NCBI RefSeq assembly: GCF_900169525.1
Contig: NZ_LT821239.1
Coordinates: forward strand, 1,386,708-1,450,707
DNA from: Corynebacterium pacaense
Lineage (GTDB): Bacteria > Actinomycetota > Actinomycetes > Mycobacteriales > Mycobacteriaceae
Direction: 5' to 3'
Length of the DNA: 64,000 nt
The position numbers and the translations under genes were made by a program. The notes beneath the pieces were generated by a model. It was not told the origin of the DNA, made no database searches, and saw only the letters and a program-made list of their open reading frames with translations. Shown here piece by piece: positions 61,705 to 64,000 of this stretch (positions within the stretch are counted from its first letter, which is position 1; every line of letters begins with the position of its first letter).

Positions 61705-61804
61705 CGCCGGAATCTGCGCTTCCCGGAAGGAGATTTGAATCTTTTGCCCGGAAAACCCGGGCGGTGCCATGTACTCGGGTGATAAACCTGCCACTATGGA
61801 GGGC

Positions 61805-63370
61805 ATGGATGCTACCTTCTGGATCATTGGCCTAGTCGTCCTCGCCGTTCTCGTGATCATCGCAGTGCTGATCATCGGGAAGAGGCGGGGCGAATCGAAA
61901 ACCGTCAGCTTTGAGAAGCCGGATGAGCCCAGGGAGCTCACCCAGCAGGAGAAATCGGGCAACTACCAGGCACAGGGGGGCTTCAGCTTCGCTCCCGCAA
62001 AGCAGGAGGAGAAGGAGCCGGTCCTGCTCGGGGAGCAGCAGCCCGAGGTGGTCCAGGCGCCGGAGGAGGACACCGATTCCTTCCCCGTCCAGGAGTCCGA
62101 TGAGGCCCCGGTGATCGCTGAGGAGGTCACGGTCGAGGAGGCGTCGGTCGGGGAGATCATCGACGGGCCCTCGGGGGAGGAGGCTTCCGTCGAGGAGGCG
62201 TCGGTCGGGGAGATCATCGACGGGCCCTCGGGGGAGGAGGCTTCCGTCGAGGAGGCGTCGGTCGGGGAGAATTCGGTCGAGCAGATCATCGCGGAGCCGG
62301 AAGCCGGCACTCCGGTCCCCACTCCCGAGGAGGTGGTCGAGGCCGCGGAGGCCGCACAGGTCACGGCTGAGTCGGCGGAGGCCGCCCTGGAGCAGACCCC
62401 GGTGCCGGAGACGGAGCCGGAGCCGGCTCCCGAGCCACTCGATGAGATCGCCCCGGCCGCCGGTCGTATCGGCAAGCTGCGCGGTCGGCTGGCCCGCTCG
62501 CAGAACGTGTTCGGCAAATCGGTTCTCGGGATTCTCACCGCGGGTGATCTTGATGATGAGGCCTGGGAGGACATCGAGGCCATGCTGATCAAGGCGGACC
62601 TGGGAAACAACGTGACCATGAGAGTCGTCGATGAGCTGCGGGGCAAGATCGCGGCCAACGGCGTGTCCAATGAGGCGGAGGCGCGTGCGATGCTGCGGGA
62701 AACGCTTATCGACGCCTGCCGTCCCGACCTCGACAGGGCGATCAAGGCGATGCCTTACGAGGGCAAGCCCGCGGTGGTCCTCGTCGTCGGTGTCAACGGC
62801 ACCGGAAAGACCACCACCACCGGAAAGCTGGCGAGAGTTCTCGTGTCCATGGGGCACAAGGTGCTACTCGGGGCAGCTGATACCTTCCGAGCGGCGGCCG
62901 CTGATCAGCTGGAGACCTGGGGTCGGCGCGTGGGCGCGGACACCGTGCGCGGGGCGGAGGGGGCCGATCCGGCATCGGTCGCCTTTGATGCGGTGGCCAG
63001 GGGTGTCGAGCAGCAGGCGGATGTCGTGCTGGTCGACACTGCGGGCAGGCTGCACACCTCCACCGGTCTGATGGATCAGCTCGGCAAGGTCAAGCGTGTG
63101 GTGGAGAAGAAGGCCGTCGTCGACGAGGTGCTTCTGGTCCTCGATGCCACGGTGGGGCAGAACGGAATGCAGCAGGCGAGGATCTTCTCCGAGGTTGTCG
63201 ATATCACCGGCGTGGTGCTGACGAAGCTCGATGGCACCGCGAAGGGCGGAATCGTGTTCCAGGTGCAGGAGGAGCTCGGTGTGCCCGTCAAACTGGTCGG
63301 CCTGGGCGAGGGCGCGGATGATCTGGCACCATTCGAGGTGGAGGGCTTCGTGGACGCGTTGCTCGGGTAG
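61805..63370 (+). CDS. ftsY: Signal recognition particle receptor FtsY
   Basis: The SRP receptor GTPase delivers ribosome-nascent chains to the translocon. The 521 residues start with a membrane helix (MDATFWIIGLVVLAVLVIIAVLIIGKRR), then a Glu-rich A domain of about 195 residues holding 19-residue repeats, and the NG domain: VNGTGKTTTTGKLARVL (G1), AADTFRAAAADQLETW (G2), LVDTAGRLHTSTGLMDQL (G3), TKLDGTAKGGIVF (G4). I use the ATG at 61805 because homologues begin there; ATGs at 61796 and 61769 are in frame, and the Shine-Dalgarno GGAGG is only 2 nt before 61805, so 61796 is possible. Confidence 0.94.
   Translation: MDATFWIIGLVVLAVLVIIAVLIIGKRRGESKTVSFEKPDEPRELTQQEKSGNYQAQGGFSFAPAKQEEKEPVLLGEQQPEVVQAPEEDTDSFPVQESDEAPVIAEEVTVEEASVGEIIDGPSGEEASVEEASVGEIIDGPSGEEASVEEASVGENSVEQIIAEPEAGTPVPTPEEVVEAAEAAQVTAESAEAALEQTPVPETEPEPAPEPLDEIAPAAGRIGKLRGRLARSQNVFGKSVLGILTAGDLDDEAWEDIEAMLIKADLGNNVTMRVVDELRGKIAANGVSNEAEARAMLRETLIDACRPDLDRAIKAMPYEGKPAVVLVVGVNGTGKTTTTGKLARVLVSMGHKVLLGAADTFRAAAADQLETWGRRVGADTVRGAEGADPASVAFDAVARGVEQQADVVLVDTAGRLHTSTGLMDQLGKVKRVVEKKAVVDEVLLVLDATVGQNGMQQARIFSEVVDITGVVLTKLDGTAKGGIVFQVQEELGVPVKLVGLGEGADDLAPFEVEGFVDALLG
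62132..62272 (+). repeat. 57-bp coding tandem repeat in ftsY
   Basis: GTCGAGGAGGCGTCGGTCGG recurs at 62132, 62189 and 62246. The DNA copies are almost identical, giving the 19-residue unit VEEASVGEIIDGPSGEEAS twice plus a partial third. This marks a recent in-frame expansion in the acidic A domain. Confidence 0.88.
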
Positions 63371-63389
63371 TCCCGTTACTTTGATGGTG

Positions 63390-63620
63390 TCCCCATAATG
63401 GGGATAGTCGCTGGGCCCGGTATGGCTTATTTCCCCTGTAGTTACCATGATCCGGGGGGTGTTGTCGCCGGGCTACCAGGACACCCGTTGACTGCTGATA
63501 GGGACACGGACGAGTCACTCGACTCAGTTCTCTTTTGTAACGTGGGTGCCAGCATCGGATGTCGAGACACCAGCGACGAGGTTTGACCTGTCACTGTTGC
63601 TCCGACACCACAAGGAGGCC
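63390..63620 (+). ncRNA. Candidate bridge RNA region of the IS110 element
   Basis: IS110 elements encode a structured bridge RNA in the non-coding end next to the transposase, with loops pairing to donor and target DNA. Here TCCCCAT-A-ATGGGGA (63390-63404) and GGGTGT…ACACCC (63457-63486) can fold. The first hairpin could instead be the ftsY terminator. Limits and loops cannot be assigned without the right end of the element. Confidence 0.3.
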
Positions 63621-63624
63621 GGCC

Positions 63625-64000
63625 ATGACCACCGGCACCATCGACGTCACCATCGGATTAGACGTCGGCAAAACCGCCCACCACGCCTGCGCCATGCTAG
63701 CCACAGGCGAGATCATCTACGACAAACCCCTGCCCCAGGACGAGGATCAGCTTCGCAAGGTCTTCACCGACCTCCAAGCCTGCGGCACCGTCCTGGTGGT
63801 CGTCGACCAGCCCAACACCATCGGTGCCCTGCCCATCGCCGTGGCCCGGGACGCTGGCTGCTTCGTCGGCTATCTACCCGGCCTGGCGATGCGCAAAGCC
63901 GCGGACTTGCACCCCGGCCGGTCGAAGACCGACCGGCGGGACGCATTCATCATCGCTGATACCGCCCGGACGATGCCGCATACCCTGCGGGCCGTGGACC
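63625..64000 (+). CDS. IS110-family transposase, N-terminal part
   Basis: The frame is open from the ATG at 63625 (AAGGAGG 6 nt upstream) to the window edge, 125 residues. MTTGTIDVTIGLDVGKTAHHACAML carries the first catalytic Asp, VVVDQPNTIGALPIAVARDAG the second acidic site, and KTDRRDAFIIADTARTMPHTLR the DxxxD part of the RuvC-like DEDD core. The serine-containing C-terminal Tnp domain lies outside the window, so whether it is intact cannot be judged. Confidence 0.9.
   Translation, partial: MTTGTIDVTIGLDVGKTAHHACAMLATGEIIYDKPLPQDEDQLRKVFTDLQACGTVLVVVDQPNTIGALPIAVARDAGCFVGYLPGLAMRKAADLHPGRSKTDRRDAFIIADTARTMPHTLRAVD

What the first reader, a model, noticed from the sequence alone, without database searches (positions are those of the whole stretch)
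63371..64000. IS110 element directly behind ftsY, with a likely bridge RNA
The DEDD transposase start and 254 bp of hairpin-rich non-coding DNA fit an IS110 left end. These elements are programmable through a bridge RNA, so this copy offers donor and target loops that could be read once the right end is known. The transposase is easily missed because its frame runs off the window.
Basis: partly seen in the sequence, partly recalled or inferred. Interest (0 to 1): 0.5.

Follow-up and report, generated by a model that had tools for sequence, protein, structure and literature searches.

The report
IS110 jumping gene seeking C-runs
Directly behind the ftsY gene sits a complete copy of an IS110-type jumping gene that very likely makes a guide ("bridge") RNA; the guide can be read, and it appears to steer the element into short runs of the base C.

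Summary
Confirmed. Window 63372 onward is the left part of a complete ~1.6 kb IS110-group element, one of four near-identical copies in this genome. The edge is 63372-63375, leaving 250 nt before the transposase ATG at 63625. A covariance model places a two-loop bridge RNA at 63385-63567. In 26 left ends (own included) its helices covary: 94.7% of cells paired, 32-47% when slid. The donor loop reads cleanly: AUAGGGACAC repeats the right end, GUAAC complements the left-end GTTAC, and both change together in relatives.

The target loop carries G6. 54 of 55 distinct left flanks end in CCC; 45 of 53 right flanks have five C after GACAC. Orthologous empty sites of two insertions read C5, C5, C5, C9 and C4. 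The nearest of eight ftsY orthologues examined has C6 at this copy's site; the other seven do not. A relative with GAAAAAG in the guide sits at CTTTTT. The left guide beyond CCC has little measurable effect.

A new member of a known kind with an unusually short, homopolymeric target. Expression and recombination are inferred; the 2-bp core cannot be placed inside the C-run.

The parts
61769..63370 (+). ftsY (host gene directly left of the element; stop codon 63368-63370 intact)
   Evidence: ORF; TIGR00064 ftsY 334.3 bits, cut-off 260.7
63372..63374 (+). CCC at the left junction: target/core C-run; the crossover lies somewhere inside the run
   Evidence: four copies agree from here; 54 of 55 distinct left flanks of relatives end in CCC
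63375..63379 (+). GTTAC, left-end donor half (right donor, RD) read by the RDG
   Evidence: complementary to GUAAC in the RNA; ATTAC/GUAAU and GTTATG/CAUAAC in relatives
63377..63382 (+). TACTTT, possible -10 of a junction promoter whose TTGACA (-35) lies near the right end; spacer would be 19 nt
   Evidence: sequence; inference. No consensus promoter was found in the linear copy
63385..63567 (+). predicted bridge RNA (model extent; true 5' and 3' ends unknown)
   Evidence: covariance model R1, 186.1 bits, E 2.4e-48; an own-genome copy (L009) is among the 23 sequences of the model, so the score is partly by construction
63387..63406 (+). 5' stem-loop of the bridge RNA
   Evidence: the stretch between GTTAC/ATTAC and GUCRC folds with at least 4 pairs in 33 of 33 non-redundant left ends; in group B that stretch is about 100 nt and the structure larger
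63413..63473 (+). target-binding stem-loop
   Evidence: helix 1 covariation, 96.2% of cells paired
63427..63440 (+). left target guide strand, UUAUUUCCCCUGUA
   Evidence: position in the loop; match to flanks beyond CCC weak
63452..63464 (+). right target guide strand, CCGGGGGGUGUUG
   Evidence: G-run complementary to the C-run target; GAAAAAG version goes with CTTTTT target
63480..63563 (+). donor-binding stem-loop
   Evidence: helices 3 and 4 covariation
63496..63509 (+). left donor guide, UGAUAGGGACACGG; AUAGGGACAC equals the right end of the element
63533..63546 (+). right donor guide, UUUUGUAACGUGGG; GUAAC complements GTTAC at 63375
63612..63618 (+). ribosome-binding site AAGGAGG
   Evidence: sequence
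63625..64000 (+). IS110 transposase gene, 5' part (continues to window-equivalent 64830)

Best explanation
63372 to window-equivalent ~64970 is a complete IS110-group insertion sequence. Its left end encodes a bridge RNA (about 63385-63567). On excision to a circle the right end (TTGACA near its tip) and the left end (GTTACTTT) join and probably form the RNA's promoter (inferred). The RNA binds the transposase. Its second loop pairs with the circle junction (AUAGGGACAC with the right end, GUAAC with the left end). Its first loop carries G6 and pairs with a genomic run of about five C, where the circle is integrated without a long target duplication. Shown here: element ends, copy number, RNA fold by covariation, joint change of donor guide and donor, and the C-run at insertion sites and at several empty sites. 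Inferred: transcription, RNP formation, circle, recombination chemistry, and a CC core.
For: Transposase family. The only solved relatives by sequence at E up to 0.01 are IS621 and ISCro4; the best 11 Foldseek matches of a modest model of a relative (pLDDT 69.8, pTM 0.48) are IS621/ISCro4 chains. Four copies share ends. RNA covariation: 31 pairs, 13 with change on both sides, 88 such cells vs 28.6 shuffled. Donor guide vs donor in 31 of 33 elements: LD 235 of 248 letters (shuffled 225.8), RD 152 of 155 (shuffled 142.5), 0 of 5000 shuffles as high for either. Further donor types. C-run: against 2.45% of window positions preceded by CCC. Empty sites; own site in one orthologue (L246, C6). Model hits in 91 of 242 genus genomes and 25 of 296 class genomes, the own included in both.
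Against: No expression or activity data. Donor covariation rests on few independent changes because relatives fall into clades; one control ('further pair types' 37 vs 37.4 shuffled, 350 of 500 as high) shows no excess. L167 reads GCAA where GUAAU would be expected; for GTTAC types a free search for the guide ties at 5 of 7 letters elsewhere in several loci. LDG reads GG where a CC core would be expected. The left target guide beyond CCC matches flanks only weakly (-4: 29 of 71 vs 21.8, p 0.028; -5 to -8 not significant; 3 of the 71 guides were cut short by the pattern). Orthologues L144 and L233, 76-77% alike, show no uninterrupted C-run at the site; neither do 7 of 8 ftsY orthologues. No sigma-70-like promoter in the linear copy, and the junction spacer would be 19 nt. 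No Rfam family reached its gathering score.
Confidence: 0.9

Rival explanations
1. The element is an IS110 element with a bridge RNA, but the C-run belongs to the element's own ends and is not read in the target; insertion is nearly unselective.
For: Ends of IS110 elements are often misplaced, with target bases counted as element or the reverse (PMC11187229 section 13). Flanks outside the C-run show little preference, and left-guide matching is weak. Orthologues L144 and L233 (76-77% alike) and 7 of 8 ftsY orthologues show no uninterrupted C-run.
Against: Nearer orthologous empty sites contain the run: L125 C5 and L126 C9 for one insertion (94% and 92% alike), L224 C5 and L225 C5 (88%) and L232 C4 (76%) for another, and L246 C6 behind ftsY (89%). 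The two arms of a hairpin at the L086 site fit C5 or C6 before insertion (flanks). C-runs at the junctions vary from 2 to 10 on the left and 2 to 9 on the right. The guide variant GAAAAAG goes with CTTTTT.
Confidence: 0.12
2. The left end is merely a structured 5' untranslated region that controls transposase expression; there is no separate guide RNA.
For: The stretch lies directly upstream of the gene, and its fold energy alone is unremarkable (z -1.86).
Against: The two-loop covarying fold, the donor guide changing with the donor ends and the target guide variant are not expected of a leader. It occupies the place and form of the IS621 bridge RNA (PMC11208160 sections 6, 7, 12 read).
Confidence: 0.03
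3. It is an IS1111-type element, with sub-terminal inverted repeats and the guide RNA in the right end.
For: Short inverted similarity GGTGTCCC at both ends (63386-63393; right end GGGACACC).
Against: Left non-coding end 250 nt; right end 142 nt after the last sense codon, 139 after the stop. The covarying RNA is in the left end. GGGACAC is the donor itself, and the repeat lies at unequal distances from the two tips.
Confidence: 0.02

Closest known systems
IS621 (IS110 group; Durrant et al. 2024, PMC11208160, sections 6, 7, 12 and passages read; Hiraizumi et al. 2024, PMC11208158, passages only)
   Same: Left-end bridge RNA with 5' stem-loop, then target loop, then donor loop; left guide copies the top strand, right guide complements it; discontiguous right donor guide (here GUAAC-GU-GG against CC-GTTAC fits the nine-against-seven pairing described); TTGACA near the right end fits a junction promoter; transposase is the nearest solved relative.
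   Different: Target is a short C-run, whereas IS621's left guide pairs over eight or nine and its right guide over four to seven bases; core would be CC instead of CT; protein longer (401 aa against 328 in the solved chain); D61 stands where the E of DEDD is expected.
ISEc21 / IS110 family with seekRNA (Siddiquee et al. 2024, PMC11187229; passages and section 13)
   Same: Upstream non-coding region encoding a guide RNA; natural re-aiming among relatives is described there for ISEc11/ISXne4 (passage) and is seen here as G6 to GA5.
   Different: The words cytosine, homopolymer and CCCC do not occur in its main text, and section 13 names no C-run target; its figures and supplements were not seen.
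ISKrh6 of Kocuria rhizophila (PMC12500396, passages only)
   Same: Actinobacterial IS110 element of similar size (1,476 bp) with a region proposed to give a seekRNA.
   Different: Target not resolved in that paper; its sequence was not compared here.

Membership tests
IS110 family | DEDD (RuvC-like) transposase with C-terminal Tnp domain | tested here: met
   PF01548, PF02371 and NF033542 above cut-off
IS110 family | Catalytic D, E, D, D and serine | tested here: inconclusive
   D13, D103, D106, S318 and G319 invariant in 13 aligned relatives; the second acidic residue is an invariant D61, not E (A5). Assigned by spacing and strand position, not by residue-level alignment to IS621.
IS110 family | No long terminal inverted repeats and no target duplication beyond the core | tested here: met
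   ends compared among four copies and with orthologous empty sites of two other insertions; only the C-run is repeated
IS110 group (vs IS1111) | Left non-coding end longer than right, guide RNA in the left end | tested here: met
   250 vs 142 nt, stop codon counted in the latter; model hit 63385-63567
Bridge RNA | Conserved two-loop secondary structure | tested here: met
Bridge RNA | Second loop complementary to donor, covarying with it | tested here: met
   few independent changes
Bridge RNA | First loop complementary to target, both guides | tested here: inconclusive
   right guide met; left guide only for CCC
Bridge RNA | Transcribed RNA bound by transposase and required for recombination | not testable with these tools
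   needs RNA and biochemical data
IS110 family | Circular intermediate with junction promoter | not tested
   only the sequence elements were noted

The most novel reading that the evidence does not exclude
An actinobacterial clade of bridge RNAs in which target recognition has shrunk to a homopolymer guide (G5-G7) that seeks C-runs. This gives an RNA-guided element thousands of possible sites in a GC-rich genome. The guide and target lengths drift by replication slippage, and sister lineages have re-aimed by changing a few guide bases (GAAAAAG for CTTTTT inside an IS4/5-type transposase gene).
Probability: 0.45. Interest if true: 0.55.

Novelty: new member of a known kind. Interest (0 to 1): 0.4.

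Why it matters
It gives a bridge RNA whose donor loop can be read letter by letter and whose target rule (a C-run) differs from the longer targets described for IS621. If true, it shows how little target sequence a bridge recombinase can work with, and it offers a natural pair (G6/C-run and GA5/CT5) for testing how the right target guide sets the site. It also warns that some IS110 elements are nearly promiscuous, which bears on specificity claims for bridge editing.

Tried and rejected
Rfam: nothing reached a gathering score. Promoter scan of the linear copy: none. Fixing the core dinucleotide: from junction runs a and b and empty-site runs n, the donor run a+b-n comes out as 3 (L100, if the five positions kept in orthologue L144 are taken as n) or 4 (L096 with L224/L225; L086 if its hairpin arms mean C5, or 3 if C6), so the crossover cannot be placed uniquely. 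A stop-free-frame test of the joined L100 flanks pointed to run lengths 0, 3, 6 or 9 instead, in a frame without the ATPase-like motif that I read by eye; I set it aside. In L170 the donor run would be 1 or 2, depending on whether C5 or C4 orthologues are taken as the ancestor. Left target guide matching: tested, mostly not significant. Guide G-run length against C-run length: too few elements with 5 and 7 G to judge. Structure model: too weak in the serine loop (pLDDT below 50 at 313-330) to judge the D61 question. Rows dropped: one search located 107 copies (82 distinct); 26 of the 107 lacked one end motif as I had written it and were left out of the C-run count (18 of group B, L072, and seven cut or degenerate ones). 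L030, L047, L068 and L116 were skipped; L068 and L116 had no readable right end. Literature: in nine PubMed Central searches the listed titles and abstract starts showed no report of an IS110 element aimed at C-runs; one search returned no paper, and searches listed only 15 of 61 and 12 of 251. Only open-licence papers are held; ISfinder and supplements were not read.

Full report
WHAT IS THERE. The host gene ftsY ends at 63370. From 63372 the sequence is shared by four copies in the own genome: each of the other three agrees with this one for 129 bases left of a common anchor and diverges beyond. On the right all four end in TTGACAAAAACATAGGGACACCCCCC, outside the window at equivalent 64969-64974. 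The transposase starts at 63625 and ends at equivalent 64830. PF01548 finds exactly these four places in the own genome. Right of the element lie an ammonium transporter and a P-II gene.

THE PROTEIN. PF01548 1.8e-48, PF02371 1e-21, NF033542 above its cut-off. By sequence the only solved relatives at E up to 0.01 are IS621 and ISCro4. A model of a relative (L039, 90% identical) is modest (pLDDT 69.8, pTM 0.48), and its best 11 structural matches are IS621 and ISCro4 chains; the twelfth is TIGR-TasR. D13, D61, D103, D106 and S318-G319 are invariant in 13 relatives. An aspartate, not the usual glutamate, stands at the second acidic position; this is placed by spacing only.

THE RNA. 26 left ends (own included) were aligned. 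RNAalifold gave 45 pairs, 14 with compensatory change. A reduced 31-pair structure (I left out pairs within the guide strands and pairs with the donor end) has 94.7% of cells paired against 83.8% shuffled (0 of 500) and 32-47% when slid; 88 cells are changed on both sides against 28.6 shuffled (0 of 500); the covariation score is 0.369 against 0.176 (0 of 500); pairs with change on both sides are 13 against 9.9 (3 of 500); only the count of further pair types shows no excess (37 vs 37.4). The 5' stretch folds with at least 4 pairs in 33 of 33 non-redundant left ends. The model built from 23 left ends, an own-genome copy among them, marks 63385-63567. It finds matches in 91 of 242 genus genomes and in 25 of 296 class genomes, the own included in both.

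DONOR LOOP. The 5' strand UGAUAGGGACACGG repeats the right end (CATAGGGACAC); the 3' strand GUAACGUGGG complements the left end (GTTAC, then GG for CC after a two-base bulge, by my reading). In the 48-50% group B the right end is TAGGAACA with guide UAGGAAC, and the left end is ATTAC with guide GUAAU. In 31 of 33 non-redundant elements the letters agree better than under shuffling, though these are few independent events. Class-level relatives add more types: GTTATG with CAUAAC in six loci (L174-L178, L182; 6 or 7 of 7 letters), ATTAC with GUAAU together with a GGGACA right end (L166, L187), and GGGGCA on both sides in L170. Against: L167 reads GCAA where GUAAU would be expected, and for GTTAC types the free search ties at 5 of 7 elsewhere in several loci.

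TARGET LOOP. The right strand holds G6 (5 to 7 G among relatives and near-identical copies). Of 107 copies located, 82 of them distinct, 81 showed both end motifs, giving 57 distinct sites: 54 of 55 distinct left flanks end in CCC; after GACAC 50 of 53 distinct right flanks start with CCCC and 45 with CCCCC. In the window 2.45% of positions follow CCC and 0.14% start CCCCC. Bases outside the run show little preference. Matching of the left guide upstream of CCC is weak.

EMPTY SITES. For the L095 insertion, orthologues read C5 (L125) and C9 (L126); for L096 they read C5, C5 and C4 (L224, L225, L232). For L100 and L088, orthologues 76-77% alike show no uninterrupted run (L144, L233), though L144 keeps the length of five between the flanks. 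The two arms of a hairpin at the L086 site fit C5 or C6 (flanks). For this window's own copy I read the DNA behind ftsY in eight genomes whose match ran to or past the junction: the nearest (L246, 89% over the ftsY end) reads TAA-CCCCCC-GG directly behind the stop, like TAGT-C-run-GGG here; the other seven (82-86%) have no such run. No spanning match for the other three own copies was listed. Runs of five or more C or G occur 158 times in this 64 kb window, of six or more 20 times; scaled to 3.03 Mb that is about 7,500 and 950.

A NATURAL RE-AIMING. Three class-level matches (L170, L173, L180) carry GAAAAAG or GAAAGGG in place of G6. L170 has a readable right end followed by CTTTTTAGCC, as AAAAAG predicts. 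Its joined flanks match 56 of 150 genomes of that genus, its own included. Of 15 aligned rows from the loci fetched, 13 read C4-C5 followed by at least four T at the site. In L209 the site lies in an IS4/5-type transposase gene (PF13340). L173 and L180 have similar left flanks, but no right end was found for them.

HOW IT PROBABLY WORKS, AND WHAT IT IS. The anatomy follows the IS621 scheme read in PMC11208160 sections 6, 7 and 12 and in passages of PMC11208160 and PMC11208158: a circular intermediate, a junction promoter, a bridge RNA with target and donor loops, and strand exchange at a dinucleotide core. Everything after the sequence evidence (transcription, complex, circle, core) is inference. 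The core is probably CC but cannot be placed inside the C-run. The element is a new member of the IS110 group. What is unusual is the short homopolymeric target, a point I did not see in the listings of my searches, none of which covers ISfinder or supplements.

Noticed in passing
L092 (G180:C67:46000-54000); also G035, G082, G181, G201, G238, G239: In 7 of 242 genus genomes two copies of a 77%-identical relative lie on one strand 4,271-4,274 bp apart (one of the pair partial in G181). In L092 they enclose a metal ABC-uptake module (PF00005; PF00950 plus PF01297). The same inner junction occurs with at least four different outer left flanks (L092, L041, L044, L049), as if moved as a composite transposon.
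   Followed up: partly
L097 (G081:C1:431200-434700): This copy's left flank is the right end (TTGACAACCTATATAGGAACACCC) of another, group B, IS110 copy: the C-run at one element's end has served as target for another.
   Followed up: no
L044, L092, L093-L095, L104-L106: The G-run of the right target guide varies from 5 to 7 among near-identical elements, and C-runs at the junctions vary too; slippage or sequencing error.
   Followed up: partly
A5 column 61 (own transposase D61): An invariant aspartate stands where the glutamate of the DEDD motif is expected.
   Followed up: partly
Helcobacillus massiliensis loci L054-L062, L064, L065, L071, L076: 13 copies of a 68%-identical relative among the loci fetched from one genome, at distinct sites with C-runs.
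   Followed up: partly
window 62130-62270: The ftsY reading frame holds a near-perfect repeat (EEASVGEIIDGPSGEEASVE...) in its acidic N-terminal part.
   Followed up: no
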